Below, one piece after another: positions 22,178-34,977 of a DNA stretch of 35,980 bases; position 1 is the first letter of the stretch; every line of letters starts with the position of its first letter. A program made the translations under genes and the position numbers. The DNA is from a virus. Where the stretch lies: positions 1-35,980 of the IMG/VR virus record IMGVR_UViG_3300037247_002101; one strand, 5' to 3'. Under the pieces are notes generated by a model that was given only the letters and a program-made list of their open reading frames with translations, did no database searches and was not told the DNA's origin.

Positions 22178-22186
22178 GTTTTTTCA

Positions 22187-22206: not shown

Positions 22207-22231
22207 AGAGATTTTATTTTGGAGAAAAAAA

Positions 22232-22507: not shown

Positions 22508-22524
22508 ACCGAAAGGAGTTTTGT

Positions 22525-23099: not shown

Positions 23100-23100
23100 A

Positions 23101-23540: not shown

Positions 23541-23553
23541 CTAGGAGTTTATT

Positions 23554-23769
23554 ATGCGTACATTAAACAGAATAGGTTTTTGGGGTTGGTTAGTCCTAAT
23601 AACCATTGCAAACGTTCTTCATGTCAAATCTTGTGGAATGACTTTGGAAAATAAATATGCAGCCTATCTGGAATTCTGGTTGTTATTTATAATCGTTATT
23701 CCTGTTTTCGTGTACATGTGGTTCCGGGATTGGAGCAAACCCAGAATGTTCGATCTTCGAAAGTTTTAG
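23554..23769 (+). CDS. Small two-helix membrane protein, paralogue of 23101 gene
   Basis: 71 aa, beginning MRTLNRIGFWGWLVLITI. Hydrophobic helices at about 8-22 and 38-56, ending YMWFRDWSKP. It shares the first and last motifs with the 65-aa protein two genes upstream. RBS AGGAG lies 8 nt upstream. A long hairpin follows the stop codon. Confidence 0.72.
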   Translation: MRTLNRIGFWGWLVLITIANVLHVKSCGMTLENKYAAYLEFWLLFIIVIPVFVYMWFRDWSKPRMFDLRKF

Positions 23770-23780
23770 AAATTATTAAA

Positions 23781-23812
23781 ACGTAGAAGGGCCTATGCTG
23801 GTCCTTCTACGT
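23781..23812 (+). terminator. Long hairpin after membrane-protein gene
   Basis: Stem of 13 bp (ACGTAGAAGGGCC with GGTCCTTCTACGT), loop TATGCT. There is no U-run (ATTTCATTG follows), so it may act as an attenuator or processing site before the 23845 gene. Confidence 0.5.
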
Positions 23813-23844
23813 ATTTCATTGTGTTCTTAAAAAGGAGGTTTAAC

Positions 23845-24225
23845 ATGATAGAATTAGATACTCTATATTATGATCAATGTGGTATTTCTGCACTAGTATT
23901 TCCTCGACATTATGTCGGCGCGCACGAAGTTAAAGACAAACAGATTCACAATCTGGAACTTTGGAATTCTAATTTCGATACAGAGAGCAAAGACATGAGA
24001 CGAGAATTAATTGAGTGTGTAGTACTTTATGATGAAACTAATTCCATTGTTCTTGAATTGCGCGAACTCCATTCCTGGCACAATAAAGAAAATTGTCTCC
24101 GTAATGACCTGGTCGATGTTAAAAAAAATACCGGTGGACGTGATTTTTATCCTTTATGGCATCAATTTCTGACCATGGTCCATGTTATGAAACCTATGAA
24201 AAAAACCATTAAAGGATTCTTCTAA
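23845..24225 (+). CDS. Unknown protein
   Basis: 126 aa from ATG at 23845 (MIELDTLYYDQCGIS), with AAAGGAGG 8 nt upstream; the in-frame ATG at 23821 would lie in the duplicated hairpin leader. Mixed alpha/beta, with ELIECVVLYDE and IVLELRELHSWHNKEN. No family is recognised. Confidence 0.65.
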   Translation: MIELDTLYYDQCGISALVFPRHYVGAHEVKDKQIHNLELWNSNFDTESKDMRRELIECVVLYDETNSIVLELRELHSWHNKENCLRNDLVDVKKNTGGRDFYPLWHQFLTMVHVMKPMKKTIKGFF

Positions 24226-24232
24226 TGTTATA

Positions 24233-24269
24233 AATACGTAGAGAGGCTACTTTGGCTTCTCTACGTATT
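24233..24269. terminator. Convergent bidirectional terminator
   Basis: Stem AATACGTAGAGA with TCTCTACGTATT (12 bp), 13-nt loop. It lies between the plus gene ending at 24225 and the minus DUF5662 gene ending at 24247, and serves both. Confidence 0.6.
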
Positions 24270-24705
24270 TCATTGTGTTCTTAAAAATTTTAGTTAACTG
24301 ATCGCCGATGCTAAATCTCTTTTGGTTATGTTCTATTGATTTTTTTAGATTGCCATCGGCATGCCGAAGGGTGGCTGATTTCCAGTCACAAAACATCTCT
24401 ATTAGGTCTAATAAATCCATTCCGTTAATTCCACCATGGCCGGAATAATGTTCCGGATGATGGCTATTTTTTTTATAGTGATGATCAAGAGCAGGTTTCA
24501 TCTCTACGAGGAATTCATTGTATTCCTCGCTGCCATATGTGGTGCCTTTTAATTTAGGTGTGTATTCTTCGAATACACTTTTCTCCGGATCCTCGAGTTT
24601 GCTCTTGTCGTGCTCACTTGCTCTCTTTGCGAGCTCTTGTATCATATCTAACAGATAAGACCTTACCTGTTGTATGTGCTTCATTGTTTCTAATTCTACG
24701 TTCAT
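24247..24705 (-). CDS. DUF5662-like protein
   Basis: 152 aa, beginning MNVELETMKHIQQVRSY. DUF5662 features: ASEHDKSKLEDPE (about 29-41), then EMKPALDHHYKKNSHHPEHY (about 69-88) and LIEMFCDWKSATLRH. The repeated His/Asp pairs suggest a metal-dependent HD-like fold. It is a relative of the 9759-10343 product but lacks the N-terminal tag, though MKYVEK occurs at its extreme C-terminus. It is the only minus-strand gene right of 22.2 kb. The start site is predicted exactly at the ATG (leaderless). Confidence 0.75.
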   Translation of the reverse strand: MNVELETMKHIQQVRSYLLDMIQELAKRASEHDKSKLEDPEKSVFEEYTPKLKGTTYGSEEYNEFLVEMKPALDHHYKKNSHHPEHYSGHGGINGMDLLDLIEMFCDWKSATLRHADGNLKKSIEHNQKRFSIGDQLTKIFKNTMKYVEKPK

Positions 24706-24711
24706 GTATAC

Positions 24712-24740
24712 AATTTACAAATAATTAACTGAAATTGCAA
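24712..24740 (-). promoter_or_regulatory. Sigma70-like promoter, leaderless geometry
   Basis: TTGCAA (24735-24740), 17 nt, TAAATT (24712-24717), GTATAC, ATG. The seventh base after the -10 box is the A of the ATG. Nearly the same block precedes the HNH gene at 2702. Confidence 0.6.
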
Positions 24741-24761
24741 ATCCTATTTTAAGGAACTACT

Positions 24762-25718
24762 ATGCCTACATTAACGGGACGGTTAGGTAACATTCGACAC
24801 AAAATACTTCCTTCATTAACTCACGAAGTTTCAATGAAAGTTACAGCAGATAAATGGATAAATACACATGTCCAGTCTGGTATTGAAGGAGAACCTGAAA
24901 ATTTAACATCTGACGAAACGGCACATGCTGTCAGTCATATGGATGAAGAAGATCATTATTTAATGAAATCAAAAAAATTGATGCATTTTGGTCCGTATTA
25001 TATCGTAACAAGATCTACTTCGTTAGGATATAATTTTTTAGCTTTAGCAGTATTTAAAGGAAGACATCCAGCTGTATTAACAGAGACACAACAATTCGTC
25101 CTTAATAGATTTTCCCCTGTTGGTGCAAATGGTTTAAAAACCTTAATTGAGCCAACAGATATTGCGTTCTATATGAATATGCTCAAACCGTTATTAAACT
25201 ATCTAATACCAAGAGCACAAGCTTTTGTATTTTGTGATTGTCATACTGGACTCTTTAATATAAAATGTTCAGAAAATCTTCATGATGAATTTGGTGTCAG
25301 TTATGACAAAATATTTTACACCAGCAAAAGACATCCGGATGAATATTACAAAAAGCTATGGCATGATGCAGAAAAGCTTCGCCCATATTTTAATAATGAG
25401 GATCTTTTAGATCGCTGGGCAAAACCTTATATAGCCAGAGACACATTTGAAGATCCGGCAACTGGTTTAAAAGGAAGACATATTCATAAGGCAGGAAAAA
25501 CCAGAAAAATTCCACAAATGGATCAAGTACCAGTCCATGTACCTGAATCAACATTATTGCCCGTATGTAAAGATTATTATTATCGTACAGGTCAAAAAGC
25601 GTTAGTCATATTATTTGACGACACAATGTCCCAATACGGATGTACTGCAAAATCCATTATAAACCAGATTGGTGAATACGCTGACGTGATAGTAATTGTC
25701 ACGATGTATGAGTACTAA
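24762..25718 (+). CDS. Unknown protein, 318 aa
   Basis: Begins MPTLTGRLGNIRHKILP, with AAGGA 8 nt upstream. It is soluble and mixed. Notable parts are FVFCDCHTGLFNIKCSEN (Cys/His cluster, about 156-173), RHIHKAGKTRKI and a C-terminal alpha/beta segment, ALVILFDDTMSQYGCTAKS. No known family is recognised. It is a single gene closed by a strong terminator. Confidence 0.75.
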   Translation: MPTLTGRLGNIRHKILPSLTHEVSMKVTADKWINTHVQSGIEGEPENLTSDETAHAVSHMDEEDHYLMKSKKLMHFGPYYIVTRSTSLGYNFLALAVFKGRHPAVLTETQQFVLNRFSPVGANGLKTLIEPTDIAFYMNMLKPLLNYLIPRAQAFVFCDCHTGLFNIKCSENLHDEFGVSYDKIFYTSKRHPDEYYKKLWHDAEKLRPYFNNEDLLDRWAKPYIARDTFEDPATGLKGRHIHKAGKTRKIPQMDQVPVHVPESTLLPVCKDYYYRTGQKALVILFDDTMSQYGCTAKSIINQIGEYADVIVIVTMYEY

Positions 25719-25725
25719 TTGGCGG

Positions 25726-25758
25726 AAAGGGTTACGTACGTAGCCCTTTTCTTTTTTA
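25726..25758 (+). terminator. Intrinsic terminator
   Basis: Stem AAAGGGTTAC / GTAGCCCTTT with loop GTAC (a T-G wobble inside), then TTCTTTTTT. Confidence 0.8.
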
Positions 25759-25768
25759 TGTATAAACA

Positions 25769-25788
25769 GGCATAAGAAAAATAATAAG
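25769..25788 (+). promoter_or_regulatory. GGCATAAGA promoter-like element
   Basis: CAGGCATAAGA followed by AAAATAATAAGGAAG. A terminator hairpin starts only about 30 nt downstream, so its transcript would meet a stop signal before the 25860 gene. Confidence 0.45.
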
Positions 25789-25809
25789 GAAGTTGTTTCA
25801 ATTAATGGG

Positions 25810-25836
25810 AAGGTCACATACGTGGCCTTTTCTTTT
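25810..25836 (+). terminator. Terminator/attenuator in leader of 25860 gene
   Basis: Stem AAGGTCAC / GTGGCCTT with loop ATAC, then TTCTTTTC. It lies between the element at 25769 and the RBS of the next gene. Confidence 0.65.
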
Positions 25837-25859
25837 CATTATTTATGGAGGTATTTTTT

Positions 25860-26381
25860 ATGAGTTATACTCTAATTGAAGTCAAAGACCTTAAATCAGA
25901 AAGTATTTATGGAAAAACCAATCCACATGGGAGCAACGTCAAGCCAACCCTCGTTTATCTTTCCAAAGTTTTCAAAGGTGACAAATACGAGGAAGTAACA
26001 GAAGGTTTAAATTATCATGATGCTAGCGGCCGGCCAGGATTCAATTCCACCAGAAGATGTGAAACGAATTTTGCATTATATACACGGTTGGATGAAAACA
26101 GTTTCACGTCCTGGATTGTTAGCTACGCATGCGATAGCAAAAATGGTATTGGTTTCGTTGAGGTATCCCGTAAACTTGTTCCTGAAATGGAAGAGTTTAT
26201 GGCACATGTTGAAATGCTTACTAGTGTGTCTTTGCGGTTGCAGAATATACTGGACAACGGATTTCCTACCATACTGGACGCGCTGATGAGAGTTACCGGC
26301 CAGAAGGATCTCAAAAAGAAAATTGAGAAAGAACCACAACTGGTGAAGTTGTTTGAAAGGATTGATGACTCACTCAGTTAA
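25860..26381 (+). CDS. Unknown protein
   Basis: 173 aa from ATG at 25860 (MSYTLIEVKDLKSES), with GGAGG 8 nt upstream. N-terminal half beta-rich (FNSTRRCETNFALYTRLDEN, then SFTSWIVSYACDS); C-terminal half helical, with VEMLTSVSLRLQNILDNG and DLKKKIEKEPQLVKLFERI. No family is recognised. Confidence 0.7.
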   Translation: MSYTLIEVKDLKSESIYGKTNPHGSNVKPTLVYLSKVFKGDKYEEVTEGLNYHDASGRPGFNSTRRCETNFALYTRLDENSFTSWIVSYACDSKNGIGFVEVSRKLVPEMEEFMAHVEMLTSVSLRLQNILDNGFPTILDALMRVTGQKDLKKKIEKEPQLVKLFERIDDSLS

Positions 26382-26385
26382 CATG

Positions 26386-26580
26386 GTGAGCATGGATACG
26401 CAAGGTGTCGCCGACGAAGTGCTAGCTGGCGAAAGGTTGTTCATTTCAGTAACGATAGAACATACCTAGTAGTTAGTAAATCGCACTGTGGTCTGCAGGC
26501 GGGCGTAACACCCCGTAGAGGTATTATCAGAGACAGGAGTAATTACCTGTCTCGGGGGTTCGATTCCCTCCTTGCTCGCA
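26386..26580 (+). ncRNA. tRNA-like structured RNA (tmRNA-like or split tRNA)
   Basis: The 3' end holds a canonical T-arm, GGGGG TTCGATT CCCTC (26554-26570), followed by TGCTCGC and A (26573-26580). This last run pairs over 7 bp with GTGAGCA at 26386-26392, or alternatively with GCGGGCG at 26499-26505. An 8-bp hairpin, GAGACAGG / CCTGTCTC (26530-26553), abuts the T-arm, and AGGT-GTTC / GAAC-ACCT pairs in the 5' half. The long form (195 nt) recalls the tRNA-like end of tmRNA, but no convincing tag reading frame or G3-U70 pair is seen. The short form (82 nt) lacks a normal D-arm. No protein gene is needed to explain the region. CCA is not encoded. Confidence 0.4.
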
Positions 26581-26600
26581 TGTGTATTAAGACTTAATAT

Positions 26601-26625
26601 GGCATAAGAAAAGTGGATGTATATC
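26601..26625 (+). promoter_or_regulatory. GGCATAAGA promoter-like element
   Basis: ATGGCATAAGA followed by AAAGTGGATG and TATATC (10-nt gap instead of 6). It sits between the tRNA-like RNA and the next structured segment. Confidence 0.45.
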
Positions 26626-27058
26626 TTTTGATGCTCATTGGGTATCCATCCAATCGTAACATCGTCCGCGTTATTTCTTGGTCACTCCCACCAAGAAGCG
26701 GATCGGCAGTTAGACCCGCGCTGTTGTATGTATTTAGTATGCAGGTAACATACGTTGAATTTGTCGGGCTGCCTAAAAACTGCTTAAAGGGCAAGACTAA
26801 TAGTTCGTATATTCGGAGGAGATCATATGAACGGGCGAGCGGAAAAACAGAAATTCGCTGGAGGACTTTGGCAAGTCCGAGTCCCATCATCCCAGAGTCT
26901 TCGAGCAATATACTAAGAATGCTCTTAGTATATCTAAGTATATCGCTTGTATGGGCACATGGTGGTAGGGCGTGTCCAAACGGGAGATTCGTGATTGTAT
27001 CCTTACAATGAGTAGCCGGTATAGGGTCCTACATACGTAGGATCCTCATCCGGTTTTT
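26615..27058 (+). ncRNA. Long structured noncoding RNA candidate
   Basis: About 440 nt with no credible gene; the longest open frame (from 26613) overlaps the hairpins, has no RBS and no protein-like pattern. Stems seen: TTCTTGGT / ACCAAGAA inside CCGC / GCGG (about 26670-26703), GGACTT / AAGTCC (near 26870), and an 11-bp perfect hairpin ATATACTAAGA / TCTTAGTATAT (26908-26933). It ends in a terminator. It has its own promoter-like element. Large phage RNAs such as GOLLD and ROOL occupy similar positions beside tRNA-like sequences, but I cannot assign this to either class. Confidence 0.45.
27016..27058 (+). terminator. Terminator of the structured RNA
   Basis: Outer CCGG / CCGG and inner 10-bp stem AGGGTCCTAC / GTAGGATCCT with loop ATAC (27023-27046), then TTTTT. 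Confidence 0.65.
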
Positions 27059-27064
27059 CAAGTA

Positions 27065-27173
27065 GACAGAGGTTGTGGAGAGGAACTCTCCACTGATCGG
27101 GGTGTTGAAACCTAAATTTTTGCTGGCTGAAGATGGACACTGAGATCAAACCAGCACCTCTGTCCATTTTTTT
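27065..27173 (+). ncRNA. Multi-branch leader RNA ending in a U-tract (riboswitch/attenuator-like)
   Basis: The closing stem GACAGAGGT / ACCTCTGTC (27065-27073 with 27156-27164) encloses hairpin GTGGAGAG-GAA-CTCTCCAC (27075-27093), a small GGT / ACC hairpin near 27100, and TGCTGG / CCAGCA (27121-27126 with 27151-27156). Seven Ts follow directly (27167-27173), so the folded form is an intrinsic terminator. The AAGGAGG of the 27197 gene follows 10 nt later. The shape is that of a ligand- or protein-sensing attenuator; no known riboswitch class was recognised. Confidence 0.5.
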
Positions 27174-27196
27174 ACACACATATAAGGAGGTCCAAG

Positions 27197-27553
27197 ATGT
27201 TAATAAATGAAATTCCTTATGATAAGGACAAAGCAGATTCAATAACAAATCATATTTCTCTTGCCAATAAAGGTCAATTTTTTGAAGCCTGGTACATGCG
27301 AGAATACCATATGGTTAAACATTATGGCCTATCTGCGAAGCAGATATTCAAGAAAGTTTTTGGTAAGCAATTGACATGTGTCAATACAGATTGGTACCGT
27401 TGTTGGGTGTGGACATTCAGTAATACTGATCGCTCTGCTTGTATCTACTGCATGACTGATAAACGCGGTGTGCATTGGAAAATGGATATTGGTAGTGATT
27501 TGCGCGGTGTAATTGATTTGCGCGACGAGATAGAGAAGAAGTTAATTGCATGA
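27197..27553 (+). CDS. Unknown protein
   Basis: 118 aa, beginning MLINEIPYDKDKADS, with AAGGAGG 7 nt upstream. It has WYMREYHMVKHYGLSAKQIFKK, a Trp/Cys-rich middle (TDWYRCWVWTFSNTDRSA) and an acidic helical end, VIDLRDEIEKKL. No family is recognised. It follows the attenuator-like RNA and is coupled by ATGA to the first microprotein gene. Confidence 0.68.
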   Translation: MLINEIPYDKDKADSITNHISLANKGQFFEAWYMREYHMVKHYGLSAKQIFKKVFGKQLTCVNTDWYRCWVWTFSNTDRSACIYCMTDKRGVHWKMDIGSDLRGVIDLRDEIEKKLIA

Positions 27554-27699
27554 TAGTTGAACTTAGGAATTTTCATGTTATAATAATGGATCTTGAACTT
27601 TTTGATAAATATGTTTTCAACCTTCATACAATCTTTTTCGAGGAGAAGAGAACTAAACAGTGGGAAGTACTTTTAGCGGAGGTGAAAGGTGACAGTTAA
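27550..27699 (+). CDS. FHxIIxY-family microprotein 1
   Basis: 49 aa, beginning MIVELRNFHVIIMD. First of seven consecutive coupled paralogues. It is most like the next copy: both share LRNFHVII, F..HTIFF and W(E)...LAE. Starts ATGA on the previous stop codon. Confidence 0.7.
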   Translation: MIVELRNFHVIIMDLELFDKYVFNLHTIFFEEKRTKQWEVLLAEVKGDS

Positions 27700-27847
27700 A
27701 GTTGAACTTAGGAATTTTCATGTTATAATAAAGGATCATGATCTTTTCGAAGAGAATCTCTTCAATTTTCATACAATCTTTTTCGATGTCAGGAATAAAA
27801 AGCGATGGGAAATATTTTTAGCAGAGTGGAGAAGCAATGACGATTAA
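27689..27847 (+). CDS. FHxIIxY-family microprotein 2
   Basis: 52 aa from GTG at 27689 (VTVKVELRNFHVIIKD), chosen for GGAGG 6 nt upstream. At both DNA and protein level it is close to copy 1 (a shared run of CTTAGGAATTTTCATG), so this pair is the most recent duplication in the array. Confidence 0.7.
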   Translation: MTVKVELRNFHVIIKDHDLFEENLFNFHTIFFDVRNKKRWEIFLAEWRSNDD

Positions 27848-27977
27848 ACTATATAACTTTCGTTATATCATCGATTATAAAGATGTCCCCTGTTGTGGAG
27901 GATTTTACGCGATTAACGCGCACAGAATACAAGAACGTAGCCCAGCCATATATCTGGCCTGGTTGGAGGTAGAATGA
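27837..27977 (+). CDS. FHxIIxY-family microprotein 3
   Basis: 46 aa, beginning MTIKLYNFRYIIDYKDV, with GFYAINAHRI and a C-terminal PAIYLAWLEVE. Overlaps copy 2 by 11 nt. Most like copy 6 (GFY..HAHRI, PIYLA). Confidence 0.7.
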   Translation: MTIKLYNFRYIIDYKDVPCCGGFYAINAHRIQERSPAIYLAWLEVE

Positions 27978-28120
27978 AAGAAGTAAGACTTATTAACTTT
28001 CATTGTATTGTCCAATATCGTGAAACCAAAGATCATAGAGATAAATATTGGTTCGTACGAGCAGTACAGGTGAACTTAGAAGAATTCGCTGACGTGATTG
28101 ACCTGGTGACATTACGATGA
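27974..28120 (+). CDS. FHxIIxY-family microprotein 4
   Basis: 48 aa, beginning MKEVRLINFHCIVQYRE. It keeps the N-terminal motif (INFHCIVQY) but has a divergent, acidic C-terminal half. ATGA overlap with copy 3. Confidence 0.68.
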   Translation: MKEVRLINFHCIVQYRETKDHRDKYWFVRAVQVNLEEFADVIDLVTLR

Positions 28121-28296
28121 AAGTACGTTTACTTGATTTTCACTGTGTTATTAATTATAACGATATGTTATTGGGTTGCGGCATGTACGCAGTTAATTAC
28201 GAACGCGCGATACTATTTGAAGGCAAATCGTCTGCTGATACAGTGTATCTAGCTTTAATAATCCCGGAGGTTCAAGAGGATGAGAATACGACTTAG
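28117..28296 (+). CDS. FHxIIxY-family microprotein 5
   Basis: 59 aa, beginning MKVRLLDFHCVINYND, with GMYAVNYERAI and VYLALII. Longest member. ATGA overlap with copy 4, and its 3' end carries the GGAGG/GAGGA that serves copy 6. Confidence 0.7.
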   Translation: MKVRLLDFHCVINYNDMLLGCGMYAVNYERAILFEGKSSADTVYLALIIPEVQEDENTT

Positions 28297-28423
28297 AAAT
28301 TTTCATTATATTATTGATTACATGGATGTAGTATTTAGCCATGGTTTTTACTCAGCCCATGCTCATAGGATACGTAAACATGATACGCCAATATACCTTG
28401 CCCATATACAGGAGCCCTCATGA
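28280..28423 (+). CDS. FHxIIxY-family microprotein 6
   Basis: 47 aa, beginning MRIRLRNFHYIIDYMDV, with GFYSAHAHRIRK and PIYLAHIQEP. Overlaps copy 5 by 17 nt. Confidence 0.7.
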   Translation: MRIRLRNFHYIIDYMDVVFSHGFYSAHAHRIRKHDTPIYLAHIQEPS

Positions 28424-28557
28424 AAGTAAAATTTATTAAATGTAATTATATTCTTGATTATGCACCGACATTTGGGCAATCTGGTATAATGATTTTAGGA
28501 AAAATGGAAGATGGTCGAATAACAGGTACACTCCTTATGCCGTATGGAGGGAGATAA
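28420..28557 (+). CDS. FHxIIxY-family microprotein 7 (divergent)
   Basis: 45 aa, beginning MKVKFIKCNYILDYAPT. The FH pair is replaced by CN and the C-terminal half is different. It is the last and most divergent of the tandem run. ATGA overlap with copy 6. Its 3' end includes the GGAGGGAG RBS of the next gene. Confidence 0.62.
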   Translation: MKVKFIKCNYILDYAPTFGQSGIMILGKMEDGRITGTLLMPYGGR

Positions 28558-28558
28558 A

Positions 28559-28957
28559 ATGGACAAAACTTATTTGAAGAATTATGCAGGCGTTGAAGGT
28601 TGCGATGATGCTATTATTGCTGAGTTGTATTATGCTGATATTGAACACTATGTAATGCCAGTTAAATTTAACGGCGAAGTTCCAACGCGAATACTTGGTG
28701 AAATCAAGGGTTCGGGTTGGAGATTTAAAAGAGCCTGGACGTATTGGGTTTGTGAGGGGCCTGGTATTCCACCAAAGGAAGCCGTAGAATTACATAAGGA
28801 ATATGGCCGGGTTGTCAGAGTTTCTGGGCATTGTGGCTGTCCATCGCCATTAGAATGGTTTAAGGGTTTTGGATGTGGTTTATATCATGTAGACACATTA
28901 AAAGGGTTAAAGGCATTAGCCGATATGATCAAAAAAATCATGGCAAAAAATACCTAG
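28559..28957 (+). CDS. Unknown protein
   Basis: 132 aa from ATG at 28559 (MDKTYLKNYAGVEGCDD), with GGAGGGAG upstream. It has WRFKRAWTYWVCEGPG, a Cys/Gly cluster (SGHCGCPSPLEWFKGFGCG, about 94-112) that might bind metal, and a C-terminal helix. No family is recognised. Confidence 0.68.
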   Translation: MDKTYLKNYAGVEGCDDAIIAELYYADIEHYVMPVKFNGEVPTRILGEIKGSGWRFKRAWTYWVCEGPGIPPKEAVELHKEYGRVVRVSGHCGCPSPLEWFKGFGCGLYHVDTLKGLKALADMIKKIMAKNT

Positions 28958-28982
28958 GGTGTAAAACTTGTTTTATACCCTA
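28955..28982 (+). terminator. Hairpin overlapping the 28957 stop codon
   Basis: 12-bp stem TAGGGTGTAAAA / TTTTATACCCTA with loop CTTG. No U-run follows, so termination is uncertain. Confidence 0.45.
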
Positions 28983-29012
28983 ATACAACAAAAACAGGTT
29001 AGGAAGAATATT

Positions 29013-29258
29013 ATGGAAGACTATGAAAAACCATTGAGAAAATTCAAATTGATAGCTTATGACAAAAGATACAAGATACCCACTGATATTATTGAAGCCC
29101 ATTATTTTTGTACAGAACACCAAATGGTTGAATTTTATGTATACAAAAAAGAAAAAAAGCTAGAACATTTTTTGTGGGTTAGGTGTAGTAAAAACGATGA
29201 AATATTAGTAGCTGGTCCATTTGATTTAAGGAAATTATGGGTTGAAAAAATAGAGTGA
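29013..29258 (+). CDS. Small unknown protein
   Basis: 81 aa from ATG at 29013 (MEDYEKPLRKFKLIAYD), with AGGAAG upstream. The in-frame ATG at 28968 is inside the preceding hairpin and has no RBS. Charged, aromatic-rich, beta-like (MVEFYVYKKEKKLEHFLWVR). No family is recognised. Confidence 0.62.
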   Translation: MEDYEKPLRKFKLIAYDKRYKIPTDIIEAHYFCTEHQMVEFYVYKKEKKLEHFLWVRCSKNDEILVAGPFDLRKLWVEKIE

Positions 29259-29276
29259 CGCACGTCACTCTATTTT
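29250..29276 (+). terminator. Intrinsic terminator-like hairpin
   Basis: 10-bp perfect stem ATAGAGTGAC / GTCACTCTAT with loop GCAC, followed by TTTTACTT. It includes the stop codon of the 29013 gene. Confidence 0.65.
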
Positions 29277-29294
29277 ACTTAAAGGAAGGTACAC

Positions 29295-29489
29295 ATGAAA
29301 GATTTAGTAGCGAAATTAATTGTTATTTTAACTATTGGTGGCATAGTTGGCTCACTTGCATCTGCATTTCATATGGGCGGATGGAAAGCTTTCCTTACAT
29401 TTATGACGGCTTGTGGTATAGTATTTTTCGGAATAGGATTAATAATTTTAATAATCTGGGCTTTTCGCCGTGTCTTCGTTAAGGGTTAA
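29295..29489 (+). CDS. Small two-helix membrane protein
   Basis: 64 aa, beginning MKDLVAKLIVILTIGG. Hydrophobic helices at about 5-25 and 32-57 with a short loop (HMGGWKA) and a basic end, RRVFVKG, which would face the cytoplasm. RBS AAGGAAGG lies upstream. The function is unknown. Confidence 0.7.
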   Translation: MKDLVAKLIVILTIGGIVGSLASAFHMGGWKAFLTFMTACGIVFFGIGLIILIIWAFRRVFVKG

Positions 29490-29661
29490 TATTCTAGAAA
29501 TCACATGTGTAGTCCATGTTAATGATTTACTCTCTGATTGGATACCGCATAAGTATACATGTCACTGCCTAGGCTCTTATATTCGCAATAATAATGAGTA
29601 TCCTATATTTCTAGTAATGGAAGCAGAAAAGGATGCGAGGATCAAACATGCTAAAAGTTAA
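29470..29661 (+). CDS. FHxIIxY-family microprotein, dispersed copy 8
   Basis: 63 aa from GTG at 29470, reading VSSLRVNILEITCVVHVND. The block VNILEITCVVHVNDLL lines up with the N-terminal motif of the tandem array, with FH replaced by IT. The end has PIFLVMEAE, as in PIYLAWLE. The exact start is uncertain because no RBS is seen; it overlaps the membrane-protein gene by 20 nt. Confidence 0.5.
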   Translation: MSSLRVNILEITCVVHVNDLLSDWIPHKYTCHCLGSYIRNNNEYPIFLVMEAEKDARIKHAKS

Positions 29662-29806
29662 TCTAGTTGAGTTTCATTGCTTGATAATTTATAGAGACAT
29701 GCTTAAAAATGAATATATTATTAATAGCAGTCTACACTGGATAAATAATTCCCTTAACGATGGAGTGTATTTAGCGTCGTGGAAAAGTGGAATAAGAAAT
29801 TTATAA
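29648..29806 (+). CDS. FHxIIxY-family microprotein, dispersed copy 9
   Basis: 52 aa, beginning MLKVNLVEFHCLIIYRDM, ending VYLASWKSGIRNL. The family motif is clear (EFHCLIIYRDM). Overlaps copy 8 by 14 nt, repeating the coupled arrangement of the main array about 1.1 kb away. Confidence 0.66.
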   Translation: MLKVNLVEFHCLIIYRDMLKNEYIINSSLHWINNSLNDGVYLASWKSGIRNL

Positions 29807-29823
29807 TACAATAGGAGGTTATT

Positions 29824-30051
29824 ATGCCACTTACTTATTGTTTTCAGTGTGGAAAATATTTGCGTCTAGGACAAAAAAGAGAATGGGGAACTTTTTGTAA
29901 TGAGGAATGTTTTGAAAAATATACTGATAAAAGGAAAAGATTATTCGACCTTAAATTGGAATACTGGAAAGAAACGCATCCACGACTCCTTAATTATTAT
30001 TACGATAGTCGCAAAGTTGGCGGGTGGTATCCAGGTGTAGGAGAGGAATGA
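29824..30051 (+). CDS. Small zinc-finger protein
   Basis: 75 aa, beginning MPLTYCFQCGKYLRLGQ. CFQC (6-9) and FCNEECF (about 24-30) form a probable four-cysteine treble-clef/MYM-like finger. The remainder is a charged helix and YYYDSRKVGGWYPG. RBS AGGAGG lies upstream. DNA- or protein-binding is inferred. Confidence 0.7.
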   Translation: MPLTYCFQCGKYLRLGQKREWGTFCNEECFEKYTDKRKRLFDLKLEYWKETHPRLLNYYYDSRKVGGWYPGVGEE

Positions 30052-30073
30052 ATAGTTGTTCCTCTCTTTTTTA
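30041..30073 (+). terminator. Intrinsic terminator
   Basis: Stem GAGAGGAA / TTCCTCTC around the stop codon of the zinc-finger gene, then TTTTTT. Confidence 0.75.
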
Positions 30074-30085
30074 TCTTTAAACTAT

Positions 30086-30106
30086 GGCATAAGACAAATG
30101 TATAGA
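30086..30106 (+). promoter_or_regulatory. GGCATAAGA promoter-like element
   Basis: ATGGCATAAGA, 6 nt, TATAGA. Immediately follows the terminator at 30041-30073. Confidence 0.6.
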
Positions 30107-30152
30107 AATTTCTATGCATTTGAATAAACTTTTAACTAACTTAGGAGATAAA

Positions 30153-30248
30153 GTGGATGGAGTAACAAAAGCGTATTTAATACTTTTTGTAGTTTTGCTT
30201 ATTTCTTGTATGTCTTATATTGCGTATTACTTTTTGTATTTATCATAA
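30153..30248 (+). CDS. Single-helix membrane microprotein
   Basis: 31 aa from GTG at 30153 (VDGVTKAYLILF), preferred because AACTTAGGAG, the leader found before other genes here, lies 6 nt upstream. An in-frame ATG at 30114 would add 13 residues but has no RBS. The rest is one hydrophobic helix, LILFVVLLISCMSYIAYYF. Confidence 0.55.
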   Translation: MDGVTKAYLILFVVLLISCMSYIAYYFLYLS

Positions 30249-30267
30249 CTTAACTTAGGAGAAAAAA

Positions 30268-30519
30268 ATGAATCCCACACTAAAATCCTTTTTGGGTATT
30301 TTTATGATTGCTTTGGTTTTCGGGTTTGGCTACATTTCTTATAATCACATTGACAATTCGTACATGATGAATGAGCCGGATCATGTTGTTGAACTGGAAG
30401 CGGCAAATGACAGTTTGGAAAATGTTATATCGGACCTGGAAGAGCAGAATGCCGAATTAACGGAAGAACTGGACGAACTCACATCCGAATCAGAGGAGGA
30501 AACCACTGATGAAAAATAG
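30268..30519 (+). CDS. Membrane-anchored coiled-coil protein
   Basis: 83 aa, beginning MNPTLKSFLGIFMIALVF. An N-terminal transmembrane helix (about 7-25), then an acidic coiled coil (ELEAANDSLENVISDLEEQ onward) to the end. The plan is like an inner-membrane spanin subunit or a membrane assembly factor; there is no partner lipoprotein nearby, so spanin is not proposed. It overlaps the large membrane-protein gene by 11 nt. Confidence 0.7.
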   Translation: MNPTLKSFLGIFMIALVFGFGYISYNHIDNSYMMNEPDHVVELEAANDSLENVISDLEEQNAELTEELDELTSESEEETTDEK

Positions 30520-31882
30520 ACCCTCACAAATCGGCGCTGGATTTGCCGATGAATATTTGGGCCATGAAAAAAATATTGTGATAAATGTGGAAGATCCCCG
30601 CTATCGATATTATCAGTGGTTAAGAGGATGGTATGGTATGGGAACCAAGGAGGTTACTAACAAATGCCCCTTTTACCAATTCATGGTTTTTGGAAGTATA
30701 TTGATGCTAGCATCTATCATTGGTATCATACTAATGAAAATCATCGATATTTTTATTCTGTGGCCATTGTCATGGGTTGCTCCCAAATTTGTTGACGACT
30801 TTAATGCTACCGCATCAAAAAGCAAAATGATATTTTCCTGGATCATTACTGGGATAGTGATGATATTTGCCATACTTATAGGTGGACTTTTGTCCACAAA
30901 TATCTTAGCCTGGTTCGGCCTGGTAGTACACTGGATATTTGCAGTTCCGTGGATAATTGTTGTGTGCATATGGTTGCTAATTGTATTTCTCGTTACAACC
31001 GGGATTCCCTGGCTTTTCTTCGGTATTGGTTTTGTTCTTGAATGGCTTCTTGCCGTAATAATTGCTTTCATAAATATCCCATGGTTAAGTGTTATTATGT
31101 GGATTATGGTTGCCTTGGGCGCGATTGTTGGAACCACTATAACAATGGTATTACTTTATAAGATTGGTGTCTGGTTCTTCAAAAGTTCCTTTGTAGCATG
31201 GATAATTAAAAAATCTTGTGATGTACGAGAATTCAGAATCAGGAGACGTAGAGATCATAAGGTTAAAGTCCATAAACTGAAAAAAGAGAAAATACGGATG
31301 CGAGAACTTAAAGAGGAGGAAACCTGGGGAGGAGGATGGAGAGAGCCGAACGAAAGATGGGATAAAATTCTTGTGGCTGGATTTTCTATTGTATGGGCAG
31401 GATTAATGATTTTCCCGGGATATCCATTCAAATTGATTGGCTATGGTTTCAAATGGATTTGGGCAGGAATTGGTTTAGTAGAATCAGGCCTTGAATGGAT
31501 TGCTAAGAAAATCTGGGATGTTATTGTGGTCGTCTGGTCACTTATTACCGAAACTATTTCTAATCATTGCCCACCAATTGATTTTGTTGTCGAAATCAGT
31601 GAAAAAGGTAAATTGGTTCCACGACATAATGGAAATTTTCGATTTACGAGTATGGATCTGGATAATGATATTATGATTAATGCGACGGATCTGCCTGATG
31701 GTTTCAAACCTTTTAAAGCAAAAGATGGGCGCCAGGCAACAATTCGCTGTACGATAAAAACTTCTGAACTTGAACAAGCCAAAAGGCTTTATAATAAATT
31801 TGGGACCCGTTCGGATCTGGATGTTTTTAAAATCCAGGATTTAACGTATGTTCCTACCCGCGTGGTCAGGAAGAAGAAATAG
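30509..31882 (+). CDS. Large multi-pass membrane protein
   Basis: 457 aa, beginning MKNRPSQIGAGFADEYLG. About six transmembrane helices lie in residues 58-230, many Trp/Ile-rich with short loops. A very basic cytoplasmic segment follows (REFRIRRRRDHKVKVHKLKK, about 243-262), then one or two further hydrophobic stretches (about 292-350) and a soluble C-terminal domain (FVVEISEKGKLVPRHNG to the end). No family is recognised. It is unusually long for this region and co-translated with the coiled-coil anchor, so the two may form one membrane complex. Confidence 0.75.
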   Translation: MKNRPSQIGAGFADEYLGHEKNIVINVEDPRYRYYQWLRGWYGMGTKEVTNKCPFYQFMVFGSILMLASIIGIILMKIIDIFILWPLSWVAPKFVDDFNATASKSKMIFSWIITGIVMIFAILIGGLLSTNILAWFGLVVHWIFAVPWIIVVCIWLLIVFLVTTGIPWLFFGIGFVLEWLLAVIIAFINIPWLSVIMWIMVALGAIVGTTITMVLLYKIGVWFFKSSFVAWIIKKSCDVREFRIRRRRDHKVKVHKLKKEKIRMRELKEEETWGGGWREPNERWDKILVAGFSIVWAGLMIFPGYPFKLIGYGFKWIWAGIGLVESGLEWIAKKIWDVIVVVWSLITETISNHCPPIDFVVEISEKGKLVPRHNGNFRFTSMDLDNDIMINATDLPDGFKPFKAKDGRQATIRCTIKTSELEQAKRLYNKFGTRSDLDVFKIQDLTYVPTRVVRKKK

Positions 31883-31886
31883 CAAG

Positions 31887-31916
31887 ATAGGGTGACATAC
31901 GTCGCCCTATTTTTTT
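31887..31916 (+). terminator. Intrinsic terminator
   Basis: Stem ATAGGGTGAC / GTCGCCCTAT with loop ATAC, then TTTTTT. Confidence 0.85.
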
Positions 31917-31968
31917 AGCTATAGATTATGAAGGTATTTTTCCATATCTTTATATGAAGGAGAATGCT

Positions 31969-32688
31969 ATGCTAAAAAAATTTCTTTTCTTGTTTTTTGT
32001 TTTATTACCCATGTTGATATTTGGGCAATATGACTCTGAAGTTTCATATTACCAAATGAACATTTTCAAAATTGAAGGGAACTATGAAGTTCCTATAGAA
32101 GTCACCAAAAATGAGGGTGATTCTTTAGACTTCATAGTTGTTTACGACACTATCAACCCACCTTATATCTCACCTTATGGTAGTTTTCTATACGACACTA
32201 AACAAATAGACAACGACCAGTCGTCATGGAATGGGAACGAAATGACTATCACAAGCGTGATAGACTATCCGGAAGGTATATACGAAATTACTTTGGATGC
32301 TGTAAAGCACTGGCTGGAAGAAGATTCTTTGCTCTATGGATACTGTACCAATGCTTTGTACCTGGAAGTGGATTCCAGCAATGCTACCGCACTAATTGAA
32401 GATCCCAGGATATACGGAATTAATTTGAAACAGAATTATCCTAACCCGTTTAACCCTACCACCACTATACAATATTCTATAAAAAACCAATCAATAGTAT
32501 CTCTGCATATAGTAGATATTACCGGAAGAGTCGAAGAGATATTTTCCGAAAGATTTCGGAGTCCCGGGACATATTATGTATCGATCGACGCAAGTAATCT
32601 GGCAAGTGGCAACTATATCTATTTCCTACGTGTTCAAGCAAATGGTAAAATACACATCTTAAAGAAAGTTTTTACAGTCTTAAAATAA
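31969..32688 (+). CDS. Secreted protein with type IX secretion C-terminal sorting domain
   Basis: 239 aa from ATG at 31969 (MLKKFLFLFFVLLPMLIFG), with GAAGGAG 6 nt upstream. The upstream in-frame ATG has no RBS. Residues 1-19 are a Sec signal peptide with likely cleavage before QYDS. The middle is beta-rich (about 20-145). The last 85 residues are a T9SS type A sorting domain: QNYPNPFNPTTTIQYSI, then VSLHIVDITGRVEEI, GTYYVSIDASNLASGNYIYFLRV and a basic Lys-rich end. Such cargo crosses the outer membrane by the host Por/T9SS system and is attached to or released from the surface. A surface role such as blocking rival phages is inference. Confidence 0.88.
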   Translation: MLKKFLFLFFVLLPMLIFGQYDSEVSYYQMNIFKIEGNYEVPIEVTKNEGDSLDFIVVYDTINPPYISPYGSFLYDTKQIDNDQSSWNGNEMTITSVIDYPEGIYEITLDAVKHWLEEDSLLYGYCTNALYLEVDSSNATALIEDPRIYGINLKQNYPNPFNPTTTIQYSIKNQSIVSLHIVDITGRVEEIFSERFRSPGTYYVSIDASNLASGNYIYFLRVQANGKIHILKKVFTVLK

Positions 32689-32708
32689 CGTTATATCTAC
32701 TAATTTTT

Positions 32709-32730
32709 GGCATAAGACATGTGTATAACC
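32709..32730 (+). promoter_or_regulatory. GGCATAAGA promoter-like element
   Basis: TTTGGCATAAGA, 6 nt, TATAAC, CATTTAAGGAG. A close fit to the consensus of this element. Confidence 0.65.
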
Positions 32731-32746
32731 ATTTAAGGAGAAAATC

Positions 32747-32833
32747 ATGGATAAGCTTATGTCAAGAGCAATGATAGCATCTGGAATCATTTCTATCGTT
32801 CTCGGTTACATCTTGTTTAACATGTTGTTCTAA
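32747..32833 (+). CDS. Single-helix membrane microprotein
   Basis: 28 aa, MDKLMSRAMIASGI then IISIVLGYILFNMLF. The only gene in its promoter-terminator cassette, with AAGGAG 7 nt upstream. A tiny membrane peptide; function unknown. Confidence 0.6.
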   Translation: MDKLMSRAMIASGIISIVLGYILFNMLF

Positions 32834-32840
32834 ATTTTTA

Positions 32841-32865
32841 AAGGGAGACTCGTCTCCCTTTTTTA
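32841..32865 (+). terminator. Intrinsic terminator
   Basis: Stem AAGGGAGA / TCTCCCTT with loop CTCG, then TTTT. It is followed by an AT-only tract (about 32872-32910). Confidence 0.8.
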
Positions 32866-32918
32866 CGTATATATTTAATATATAATATTATATATATAAA
32901 TTATATTTTCTTTTATAC

Positions 32919-32938
32919 GGCATAAGAATAGTGATAAC
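32919..32938 (+). promoter_or_regulatory. GGCATAAGA promoter-like element
   Basis: ACGGCATAAGA, 5 nt, GATAAC, CATTTAAGTTAGGAG. Upstream is a very AT-rich stretch that may ease melting. Confidence 0.6.
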
Positions 32939-32959
32939 CATTTAAGTTAGGAGATTATT

Positions 32960-33391
32960 ATGCGTAAAAGTTATGATTTATCAATTGAAAATTTCCATAA
33001 AGCCAACAACTCTATCCATTCCAAGTTAATTTATGGTGGTACTCCTCAAGTGCGTTTACATGTTGCTAAAGAAATGCGCCAGCTAAATATTGATTGCAGT
33101 ACTATGCAAGAATTGTATTTTGACTGTGCAGGTGGCGGTGAGGTCCCATTATTTGCTGGATGGTTAATAATTGATAACGTTGAATTAGCAACTAAACGCT
33201 GTCAGTTCTATCTAAAAGATTATATGGATGCCAAATCAAAGGAAGAAACCTGTGTAAGATTGACATTTTTAAGTCAGAGCAGTCTGAAAAAGGAACTGGA
33301 AAACGATATTATGGTTCCAGGTTTTTATTACAATATCGTTTATTTTATAAACGCCTATGATCTATATGATGCGGGATTAATTAAAATATAG
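32960..33391 (+). CDS. Degenerate NtrC-like AAA+ protein A
   Basis: 143 aa, beginning MRKSYDLSIENFHKANN. It is a paralogue of the 33841 gene. The order YGGTPQVRLHVAKEM, YFDCAGGGEVPLFAGWLIIDNVELATKRCQ, RLTFLSQSSLKKELE, MVPGFYYNIVYFINAYDL follows the central AAA+ domain of sigma54 activators (GETGTGKE, GGTLFLDE, Q..LL, IAAT...L, F..DLYYRLNV). The Walker A lysine is missing and the Walker B DE is DN, so it should not hydrolyse ATP. The GAFTGA loop and C-terminal DNA-binding domain are absent. Confidence 0.68.
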   Translation: MRKSYDLSIENFHKANNSIHSKLIYGGTPQVRLHVAKEMRQLNIDCSTMQELYFDCAGGGEVPLFAGWLIIDNVELATKRCQFYLKDYMDAKSKEETCVRLTFLSQSSLKKELENDIMVPGFYYNIVYFINAYDLYDAGLIKI

Positions 33392-33398
33392 GAATCTC

Positions 33399-33557
33399 AT
33401 GCAGTTGTGTAAAGAATGCAAAGAATGGAATATTGACGGCACTAATGACTTGTGCCCCAAATGTCAATTTCTAGCTGATGCTATCAAAAATAACACTGAG
33501 CAAGTTATATCAGCATTGGAAATTTTGGGCTACAAGGTCACAAGAGAGGCAAAATAA
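33399..33557 (+). CDS. Small zinc-ribbon protein
   Basis: 52 aa, MQLCKECKEWNIDG onward. Two cysteine pairs, CKEC (4-7) and CPKC (19-22), form a rubredoxin-like knuckle, followed by an amphipathic helix (AIKNNTEQVISALEILGY). It lies 7 nt after the AAA+-like gene with a poor RBS (GGAATC), so it is probably coupled. The stop codon is in a terminator loop. Confidence 0.68.
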   Translation: MQLCKECKEWNIDGTNDLCPKCQFLADAIKNNTEQVISALEILGYKVTREAK

Positions 33558-33572
33558 TTTGCCTCTTTTTTA
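33545..33572 (+). terminator. Intrinsic terminator
   Basis: Perfect stem AGAGGCAAA / TTTGCCTCT with loop ATAA, then TTTTT. Confidence 0.85.
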
Positions 33573-33582
33573 GTTATAAAGT

Positions 33583-33603
33583 GGCATAAGAGTCATGAAG
33601 GCT
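33583..33603 (+). promoter_or_regulatory. GGCATAAGA promoter-like element of ncRNA
   Basis: GTGGCATAAGAGTCATG follows a terminator, as elsewhere, but no protein gene follows. The TATAAT-like box is not at the usual place. Confidence 0.5.
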
Positions 33604-33788
33604 GACTTATAACTTAGACACCGAAAATGCAGTTTCAAGGACTAATAGGTACGCGGGTGCCGTTCGTTGGCTAGAACCTAATGAAGCCGTCCGCTAGCAC
33701 TTTGACTTGGCGGTTCCGAGTCATTGACGCGAAAAATAGGACCAACATTGTAAGAAAAAGAGGAGCTGCATCTTACCCTCTTTTTTTA
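33604..33788 (+). ncRNA. Structured noncoding RNA cassette
   Basis: About 185 nt between a GGCATAAGA element and a terminator, with no open frame longer than 15 codons in the forward direction. Stems include GACTTGG / CCGAGTC with loop CGGTT (near 33703-33721) and GCTAG / CTAGC (about 33670-33697). It has the same promoter and terminator context as the neighbouring small genes, so the product is most simply an RNA. GCTAGCACTT is complementary to AAGTGCTAGC in the tRNA-like RNA at 26418. The function is unknown. Confidence 0.55.
33757..33788 (+). terminator. Terminator with competing hairpin
   Basis: Stem AAAGAGG / CCTCTTT followed by T-tract (TTTTTTT). An alternative stem GTAAGA / TCTTAC (33750-33755 with 33771-33776) would exclude it, so a switch is possible. 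Confidence 0.7.
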
Positions 33789-33797
33789 CCTTTAAGT

Positions 33798-33817
33798 GGC
33801 ATAAGAACGATGATAAT
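33798..33817 (+). promoter_or_regulatory. GGCATAAGA promoter-like element
   Basis: GTGGCATAAGA, 5 nt, GATAAT, CATTTAA, then TTTAGGAGG before the 33841 gene. Confidence 0.65.
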
Positions 33818-33840
33818 CATTTAAACTTTAGGAGGCAATT

Positions 33841-34287
33841 ATGATACAATTTGATTCTAACATACTCCCAGATAATCTTACTCCAGACCAAATAAAGACC
33901 ATGTTAATAATATGCAATGTAGTTAAAACATCTGATCCGATATTGATTTTTGGTCGTACTGGTGATATTAGAACAAATATTGCGCGCCAAATTGCTAATC
34001 GTAGCCTGTACAAAAAGTTCGGAAAAACTTATTTCGATTGTGGAGTAGAATATGGTTCAGTTCCATTAACGGCTGGAACTATAATAATCGACAATGTTGA
34101 TTATGCTTCTAAATCCGTTCAAACCAGATTAAAGGATTGTATGGACGCAAAAGTGAATAATGAGTATATGAGATTCATATTCTGTAGTGAAACTAACTTG
34201 GTAGAAAAAGTTGAAACCGGTAATCTTTTGCCTGGCGTATTCCATAATATGGTTATGAGTATTAACGCCGAGCATGTAATGTTGTGA
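33841..34287 (+). CDS. Degenerate NtrC-like AAA+ protein B
   Basis: 148 aa, beginning MIQFDSNILPDNLTPDQ. FGRTGDIRTNIARQIANRS (about 38-56) takes the place of the GETGTGKE Walker A of sigma54 activators. AGTIIIDNVDYASKSVQTRL is the Walker B/helix segment with DN instead of DE. MRFIFCSETNLVEKVETGNL matches sensor-I, and PGVFHNMVMSINAEHV matches the conserved FR.DLYYRLNV end. It lacks the ATP-binding Lys, the GAFTGA loop, receiver and HTH domains. It is a paralogue of 32960-33391 with a different N-terminus. It might act as a decoy or inhibitor of a host AAA+ activator (inference). Confidence 0.7.
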   Translation: MIQFDSNILPDNLTPDQIKTMLIICNVVKTSDPILIFGRTGDIRTNIARQIANRSLYKKFGKTYFDCGVEYGSVPLTAGTIIIDNVDYASKSVQTRLKDCMDAKVNNEYMRFIFCSETNLVEKVETGNLLPGVFHNMVMSINAEHVML

Positions 34288-34291
34288 TACC

Positions 34292-34309
34292 AGGGAGACT
34301 TGTCTTCCT
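34292..34309 (+). terminator. Weak terminator hairpin
   Basis: AGGGAGA / TCTTCCT with loop CTTG and one G-T pair, without a U-run. It sits at the place where the other cassettes have strong terminators. Confidence 0.35.
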
Positions 34310-34320
34310 AGCTATAAATT

Positions 34321-34342
34321 GGCATAAGAGTCATGGATAATC
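34321..34342 (+). promoter_or_regulatory. GGCATAAGA promoter-like element
   Basis: TTGGCATAAGA, 6 nt, GATAAT, CATTTAAGGAG. Near-identical in layout to the copy at 32709. Confidence 0.65.
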
Positions 34343-34358
34343 ATTTAAGGAGAAAATC

Positions 34359-34505
34359 ATGATTTGGGATACTTTGAAAAAATATCCGGATTGGGTTTTT
34401 GTAGCTGTTTGGTATATTATAAAATATTATAATTTTTGTTTTCATCCTGAAAGACCAACAAGGAAAAAAACTTGGAAAGGGCAATATCGCGACACAACTG
34501 AGTGA
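34359..34505 (+). CDS. Small basic protein
   Basis: 48 aa, beginning MIWDTLKKYPDWVFVAV. The first half is aromatic and possibly membrane-associated (WVFVAVWYIIKYYNF), the second half basic (RPTRKKTWKGQYR). RBS AAGGAG lies 7 nt upstream. Followed by hairpin CTCCAGAT / ATCTGGAG (34509-34527) and a terminator. Function unknown. Confidence 0.58.
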   Translation: MIWDTLKKYPDWVFVAVWYIIKYYNFCFHPERPTRKKTWKGQYRDTTE

Positions 34506-34538
34506 CCCCTCCAGATGCAATCTGGAGCAGTGTCTAAG

Positions 34539-34569
34539 GAAAAAGGTCGACATTCGTCGGCTTTTTTTA
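34539..34569 (+). terminator. Intrinsic terminator
   Basis: Stem AAAAGGTCGAC / GTCGGCTTTT with loop ATTC and a U-tract. Confidence 0.8.
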
Positions 34570-34578
34570 CCTTTAAAA

Positions 34579-34599
34579 GGCATAAGATAGATGTATAAT
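34579..34599 (+). promoter_or_regulatory. GGCATAAGA promoter-like element (best -10 match)
   Basis: TTTAAAAGGCATAAGA, 6 nt, perfect TATAAT (34594-34599), CATTTAATTTAGGAGG. Best example of the element. Confidence 0.7.
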
Positions 34600-34620
34600 C
34601 ATTTAATTTAGGAGGTTATT

Positions 34621-34977
34621 ATGAAAGTATTTTTTGGGATTCTAAGAGTTTTAATATCGCAATTATCGTACGATGCTGTTATGTATTTATCTGATCTTTC
34701 TGTTGTATTATGGGAGAATCTATATGATGTTTTCATGCGGATGGTATTTTTTGTTACCGTTATTGTTATACTTTTGTTTGATATTTGGATTTTTATAGTA
34801 TTGTATAAGTGGGTTGATCATCCACTAGTGGCAACGTTCGTTATTATCGGTGGCATTCTTGTGATATTTTTTCAAGTAGGTGGGTGGATTAATAGAAAAG
34901 ATATTTATGCGTGGTTTCTTAATGAATGGCGTAGAGCTTCTAATACATATCGACGCAAAAACAGATTGGAGAATTAG
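34621..34977 (+). CDS. Membrane protein
   Basis: 118 aa, beginning MKVFFGILRVLISQLSY, with AGGAGG 7 nt upstream. An amphipathic N-terminus is followed by two strong transmembrane helices (about 41-61 and 69-88) and a basic C-terminal tail, RRASNTYRRKNRLEN. First gene of the 34621-35727 group. No family is recognised. Confidence 0.7.
   Translation: MKVFFGILRVLISQLSYDAVMYLSDLSVVLWENLYDVFMRMVFFVTVIVILLFDIWIFIVLYKWVDHPLVATFVIIGGILVIFFQVGGWINRKDIYAWFLNEWRRASNTYRRKNRLEN

What the first reader, a model, noticed from the sequence alone, without database searches (positions are those of the whole stretch)
31969..32688. Phage-encoded cargo of the host type IX secretion system
A Sec signal peptide plus a canonical T9SS type A sorting domain (YPNPFNPTTTIQYSI, DITGR, LASGNYIYFL) on a phage gene means the product should be exported to the host surface through a system confined to FCB bacteria. 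It stands in its own transcription unit. A surface-displayed phage protein could exclude competitors, mask receptors or change adhesion. It also identifies the host group.
Basis: partly seen in the sequence, partly recalled or inferred. Interest (0 to 1): 0.85.

Follow-up and report, generated by a model that had tools for sequence, protein, structure and literature searches.

The report
Phage protein tagged for host surface
A bacteriophage gene makes a small protein carrying the address labels that its bacterial host uses to send proteins to the cell surface, so the virus probably dresses the outside of the cell it infects; one earlier phage was reported to do this, and here it recurs in several large phages.

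Summary
Confirmed: window 31969-32688 (+) encodes a 239-aa protein with a Sec signal peptide ending in FG|Q, an orphan passenger of about 130 residues, and a genuine T9SS type A sorting domain (PF18962 38.4 bits, cut-off 27; TIGR04183 30.5, cut-off 23). The gene sits in real phage DNA: terminase, capsid and helicase genes are present, a colinear 155.9-kb relative shares genes around it, and a phage-specific DNA motif flanks it. A chimera is very unlikely. The tail resembles those of Ignavibacteriota and neighbouring FCB bacteria. That fits an FCB host, but no spacer or prophage proves it.

The passenger has no detectable relative. The slot is variable: the closest relative has a lipoprotein and another secreted protein there. 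Other records of the same broad phage group carry different proteins with the same tail (206.9, 161.6 and 28.3 kb), and one phage with an unrelated terminase (171.8 kb) does too.

The concept is published: Cryophage (Bellas et al. 2020, PMC7468147) carries variable T9SS cargos. I therefore file this as a new member of a known kind. Export by Sec and T9SS is well supported by sequence. The surface role (superinfection exclusion, receptor masking, adhesion) is untested inference.

The parts
31969..32688 (+). CDS, 239 aa: signal peptide + orphan passenger + T9SS type A sorting domain
31969..32025 (+). Sec/SPI-type signal peptide, residues 1-19, predicted cleavage FG|Q (Bacteroidota 'Q-rule')
   Evidence: sequence; Q-rule PMC5837995; cleavage site inferred by eye, no SignalP run
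32026..32421 (+). passenger, residues 20-151, no detectable homologue; fold not resolved
   Evidence: AlphaFold pLDDT mostly below 50 here
32422..32685 (+). T9SS type A C-terminal sorting domain, residues 152-239
   Evidence: PF18962 38.4 bits, TIGR04183 30.5 bits; modelled as beta-sandwich at pLDDT about 85; Foldseek match to a 75-residue chain of a T9SS translocon complex, 8gl8_D, TMt 0.59
31956..31962 (+). Shine-Dalgarno GAAGGAG
   Evidence: by eye
31887..31916 (+). rho-independent terminator of the upstream operon
   Evidence: z -5.85
30509..31882 (+). conserved polytopic membrane protein (457 aa), upstream anchor of the slot
   Evidence: 43-44% identical homologue in the 155.9-kb relative G001, also in L140 and L141
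30268..30519 (+). 83-aa single-TM coiled-coil-like protein, overlaps the anchor gene, conserved with it in four phages
30086..30094 (+). phage-specific motif GGCATAAGA upstream of the slot
   Evidence: 11 copies in window vs 0.34 expected
32709..32717 (+). phage-specific motif GGCATAAGA just downstream of the gene

Best explanation
This is an accessory ('moron'-type) gene of a large tailed phage of an FCB-group bacterium, probably Ignavibacteriota. During infection the product is made in the host, crosses the inner membrane by Sec, loses its signal peptide at FG|Q, and is taken across the outer membrane by the host's own T9SS, which reads the C-terminal domain. As a type A cargo it should then be cleaved by the PorU sortase and either anchored to surface lipopolysaccharide or released. 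There the small orphan passenger changes the cell surface; the role I rate most likely is blocking further phages (superinfection exclusion or receptor masking). Shown: gene, phage context, signal peptide by inspection, sorting domain, variable slot, recurrence of tagged proteins in related phages. Inferred: export, anchoring, host group. Guessed: the surface role (about 35% for superinfection exclusion or receptor masking). The confidence given is for the export and surface-delivery part.
For: Two curated sorting-domain models pass their cut-offs. Signal peptide obeys the Q-rule; Ignavibacterium album has Q-value 77% (PMC5837995). Exact 15-aa motif YPNPFNPTTTIQYSI in a collection of 84,980 species genomes: 16 stretches, all titled Ignavibacteria/Melioribacteraceae, Chlorobi-type, KSB1 or Bacteroidetes. 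Sorting domain best matches 38-56% identical to cargos in the phylum, 205 of 345 genomes hit; DNA identity up to 91% over 53 bp in the class. Phage hallmark genes. Closest relative is colinear and has a lipoprotein (IQC lipobox) and a signal-peptide protein in the same slot; a crude screen of that whole 155.9-kb record flagged only four N-terminal-hydrophobic proteins, these two among them. T9SS-tailed proteins occur in G587 (two genes; shares the anchor cassette; beside a gene 73% identical to window 28544-28957), G606 (TerL 53%) and G020 (TerL 47%).
Against: No host assignment: no CRISPR spacer or prophage match in 294 class genomes, though only two candidate places per genome were scored. 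Most related records (48 of 50 MCP/anchor relatives and all 8 TerL relatives tested first) lack a detectable sorting domain, so it is not essential; many are fragments. The passenger has no relatives, so no functional hint. No promoter was identified.
Confidence: 0.72

Rival explanations
1. Adhesion or aggregation factor: the displayed or released protein does not block phages but changes aggregation, adhesion or debris binding, helping progeny find cells or keeping infected cells in a favourable place.
For: Cargos in related phages are varied: a 425-aa protein with a beta-helix-like NosD/choice-of-anchor similarity, a small 204-aa protein, others, suggesting binding modules rather than one conserved exclusion factor.
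Against: No recognised carbohydrate-binding or adhesin domain in this passenger.
Confidence: 0.3
2. Passenger gene without function in the phage: a recently captured host T9SS-cargo gene end that is carried neutrally.
For: The sorting domain is near-identical at DNA level over short stretches to bacterial copies; no relative in other phages.
Against: ORF intact with good SD and signal peptide; base composition like the flanks (35.7% vs 37.4% and 34.3% GC); related phages keep other exported proteins in the same slot or region.
Confidence: 0.12
3. Virion component: the Ig-like C-terminal domain is a structural decoration domain, and the N-terminal hydrophobic stretch is incidental.
For: Ig-like domains are common on phage virions (general knowledge); the modelled domain is a generic beta-sandwich.
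Against: The gene is outside the structural cluster and on the opposite strand; type A-specific motifs and two T9SS models are met; a signal peptide is not expected on a virion protein.
Confidence: 0.05
4. Assembly artefact: a bacterial fragment joined to a phage contig.
For: Short DNA matches to bacterial cargos.
Against: Phage-homologous sequence and the phage motif on both sides; similar genes in independent phage records.
Confidence: 0.02

Closest known systems
Cryophage T9SS cargos (Bellas et al. 2020, Nat Commun, PMC7468147)
   Same: Phage genes bearing T9SS type A sorting domains, at variable loci, proposed to hijack host secretion, with superinfection exclusion suggested.
   Different: Cryophage is a 76-kb circular Bacteroidetes phage with endoglucanase, GH39 and PA14 cargos. 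Here the phage belongs to a TerL/MCP group with records up to about 200 kb, the cargo is a small orphan, and the tail points to Ignavibacteriota-like hosts. Direct sequence comparison with Cryophage was not done.
Q-rule exported proteins of Porphyromonas gingivalis phages (PMC10367356)
   Same: Phage proteins with signal peptides fitted to the host's Sec/SPI habit (+1 Gln), suggested to modify the outer membrane.
   Different: The terms T9SS and type IX do not occur in that paper's main text.
Host T9SS type A cargos of Ignavibacteriota and relatives
   Same: Signal peptide plus C-terminal YPNPFNPTTTI...DxxGR...LASGxYxY domain; best sorting-domain matches about 45-56% identical.
   Different: Most host matches lie in much longer frames, several hundred to over a thousand residues; the phage passenger is about 130 residues with no detected relation to theirs.
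Phage superinfection-exclusion surface lipoproteins such as T5 Llp (from memory)
   Same: Small phage protein placed in the outer membrane during infection.
   Different: Llp is a lipoprotein and acts on a known receptor; this one would use T9SS and its target is unknown. The relative G001 does have a lipoprotein-like gene in the slot.

Membership tests
T9SS type A cargo protein | N-terminal Sec signal peptide | tested here: met
   MLKKFLFLFFVLLPMLIFG|Q; by inspection and hydropathy screen, SignalP not available
T9SS type A cargo protein | C-terminal domain matching PF18962/TIGR04183 above curated cut-offs and at the C-terminus | tested here: met
   38.4 bits vs 27; 30.5 vs 23; residues 157-234 of 239
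T9SS type A cargo protein | Domain folds as the T9SS Ig-like beta-sandwich | tested here: inconclusive
   AlphaFold with 42-sequence alignment: strands over 164-237 at pLDDT about 85; Foldseek to 8gl8_D TMt 0.59, E 7e-3; a sandwich, but generic sandwiches score similarly
T9SS type A cargo protein | Host possesses T9SS (SprA, PorV, PorU) | not testable with these tools
   Host not identified; Ignavibacteriota reported as possibly having T9SS (PMC11285876)
T9SS type A cargo protein | Export depends on the T9SS and on the C-terminal domain | not testable with these tools
   Needs experiment
Phage-encoded T9SS cargo (Cryophage type) | Gene lies in a phage genome, not in host or chimeric DNA | tested here: met
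   Hallmark genes, synteny with G001 on both sides, flanking phage motif
Phage-encoded T9SS cargo (Cryophage type) | Locus is variable between related phages | tested here: met
   Slot holds T9SS cargo here, lipoprotein-like + secreted protein in G001, no evident exported gene in L140/L141
Phage-encoded T9SS cargo (Cryophage type) | Belongs to the same phage lineage as Cryophage | not tested
   Cryophage sequence was not fetched
Superinfection-exclusion protein | Blocks adsorption or DNA entry of further phages | not testable with these tools
   Needs experiment

The most novel reading that the evidence does not exclude
A lineage of large phages of FCB bacteria keeps a swappable surface-cargo slot or region, filled with different proteins each addressed to the host surface by the host's own routes (T9SS tail, lipobox, Q-rule signal peptide), as a standing programme for remodelling the infected cell's exterior.
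Probability: 0.4. Interest if true: 0.68.

Novelty: new member of a known kind. Interest (0 to 1): 0.5.

Why it matters
T9SS is confined to FCB bacteria, and phage use of it has, as far as I could find in the held papers, been reported once. Recurrence in several phages shows that viruses repeatedly adopt the sorting tag, gives a sequence handle on host range for uncultured phages, and points to untested surface proteins that may decide which phages can infect a cell.

Tried and rejected
Middle domain: no relative in phages, viral contigs or 294 class genomes; weak matches to pre-sorting-domain regions of host cargos did not beat shuffles (best 53, shuffle maximum 59); a hit at E 0.0016 in G031 was not confirmed by its neighbourhood and is treated as chance. 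PDB sequence search: nothing. AlphaFold without alignment useless (pLDDT 41); with sorting-domain relatives only that domain resolves. CRISPR spacer search by DNA: only sorting-domain and chance hits; the best spacer-length one (G150, 28 bp) lies in a region without CRISPR repeats. Chimera: rejected. Annotated phages: three T9SS phage proteins used as queries gave no match, but tblastn may miss divergent sorting domains. VIA-align rows are generic beta-sandwiches and were not used to name a family. Not every viral motif hit is a cargo: of 73 YPNPFNP places in viral contigs only 45 have a proper tail length. Paper searches on Ignavibacteriota T9SS and on other phage-borne T9SS cargos added nothing beyond the items cited.

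Full report
WHAT IS THERE. The window is a 35,980-base IMG/VR virus record. ORF 31969-32688 (+) is intact, with GAAGGAG six bases before the ATG. Residues 1-19 look like a signal peptide with predicted cleavage FG|Q (by inspection; SignalP not available). Residues 157-234 match PF18962 at 38.4 bits (cut-off 27) and TIGR04183 at 30.5 bits (cut-off 23). This is the only such domain in the record. With 41 relatives aligned, AlphaFold models the tail as a beta-sandwich (pLDDT about 85), while residues 18-90 and 111-148 stay below 50. Foldseek lists a 75-residue chain of a T9SS translocon complex (8gl8_D; from its title and my knowledge probably the substrate domain of RemZ) with the highest target-normalised TM of the rows shown, 0.59, but E-values are only about 7e-3 and generic sandwiches score alike.

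IT IS PHAGE DNA. Minus-strand genes match terminase large subunit, major head protein, head maturation protease and helicase families. The closest relative, G001 (155.9 kb, TerL 84% identical), is colinear. The membrane-protein pair at 30268-31882 has homologues there in the same order, and a short match lies on the other side at 34563-34636. A 9-base motif, GGCATAAGA, occurs 11 times, all on the + strand, against 0.34 expected. It recurs in G001 on the cognate strand and flanks the gene at 30086 and 32709. The gene is therefore inside phage sequence.

TRANSCRIPTION. A strong terminator (31887-31916, z -5.85) separates the gene from the upstream operon. The gene itself lacks the phage motif, which reappears 21 bases after its stop codon. 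In G001 the lipoprotein-like gene in the same slot does have the motif about 35 bases upstream.

HOST GROUP. The exact 15-residue motif occurs in 16 stretches of the genome collection, all from FCB-type bacteria, mainly Melioribacteraceae and other Ignavibacteria (taxonomy). The tail matches 205 of 345 genomes of that phylum. At DNA level it is up to 91% identical over 53 bases in the class, while no other part of window 12431-32430 gave a convincing match. The +1 glutamine fits the Bacteroidota Q-rule; Ignavibacterium album is at 77% and most Chlorobi are below 9% (PMC5837995). T9SS is reported as possibly present in Ignavibacteriota (PMC11285876). None of this proves the host: no spacer or prophage was found, and the DNA searches scored only the two best candidates per genome.

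THE SLOT AND RECURRENCE. In G001 the slot holds a 539-aa lipoprotein-like gene and a 120-aa signal-peptide gene. A crude hydropathy screen of G001's ORFs flagged only four candidates, these two among them. In L140 and L141 the genes beside the membrane pair show no export signal by eye. L141's record (G587, 161.6 kb) instead has, about 50 kb away, two T9SS-tailed genes and a third signal-peptide gene. These lie beside a gene 73% identical to window 28544-28957, which is itself 3 kb from the gene studied here. G606 (TerL 53%, MCP 61%) and G020 (206.9 kb, TerL 47%) each carry another T9SS-tailed protein. G015 (171.8 kb) has one 4.4 kb from its own terminase, which is not detectably related to the window's. 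Altogether 2 of 50 capsid/anchor relatives tested were positive and 0 of 8 terminase relatives; many are fragments. In viral contigs at large, 73 places hold YPNPFNP and 45 have a proper tail.

WHAT IT PROBABLY DOES. Export by Sec and then T9SS follows from the two signals and the known pathway; it is inferred, not shown. The passenger has no relatives, so its role is open. G001's gene content (sigma factors, DNA polymerase A, baseplate protein, sugar-nucleotide and glycosyltransferase genes) looks like a large virulent phage that may also alter surface glycans; no integrase was among the families listed, but only the first 25 of each list are shown. I favour superinfection exclusion or receptor masking at about 35%, adhesion or aggregation at about 30%.

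NOVELTY. Bellas et al. (PMC7468147) described Cryophage, a 76-kb Bacteroidetes phage with three variable T9SS cargos, calling it a unique occurrence and suggesting host-system hijacking. The present case is a new member of that kind in a different setting; its added value is recurrence in a phage group and a variable exported-protein slot.

Noticed in passing
window 19223-34587: GGCATAAGA, 11 copies, + strand only, often about 40 bases before start codons, 0.34 expected; also in G001, which encodes sigma-70-like factors. Probable phage-specific promoter element.
   Followed up: partly
window 27550-29806: Run of about eight tiny (45-60 aa) paralogous ORFs with a shared L-x-N/D-F-H-x-I-I motif; one homologue in G001 (L049:17784-17999).
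   Followed up: no
window 30268-31882: Overlapping pair, 83-aa single-TM coiled-coil-like protein and 457-aa polytopic membrane protein, conserved in four phages with no known family.
   Followed up: partly
G001 (pieces L047-L054): Related phage has a hit to the 2-aminoadenylosuccinate-synthetase (PurZ-like) family phrog_1211 and a DNA polymerase A: possible 2-aminoadenine genome.
   Followed up: no
L005, L007, L245, L259, L274: Recurrent signal-peptide protein family beginning ...AQTSGNGxSxPWLVL with YPNPFNP tails in several viral records.
   Followed up: no
window 32960-33391 and 33841-34287: Two similar ORFs, the second with weak similarity to sigma-54 activator ATPase domains.
   Followed up: no
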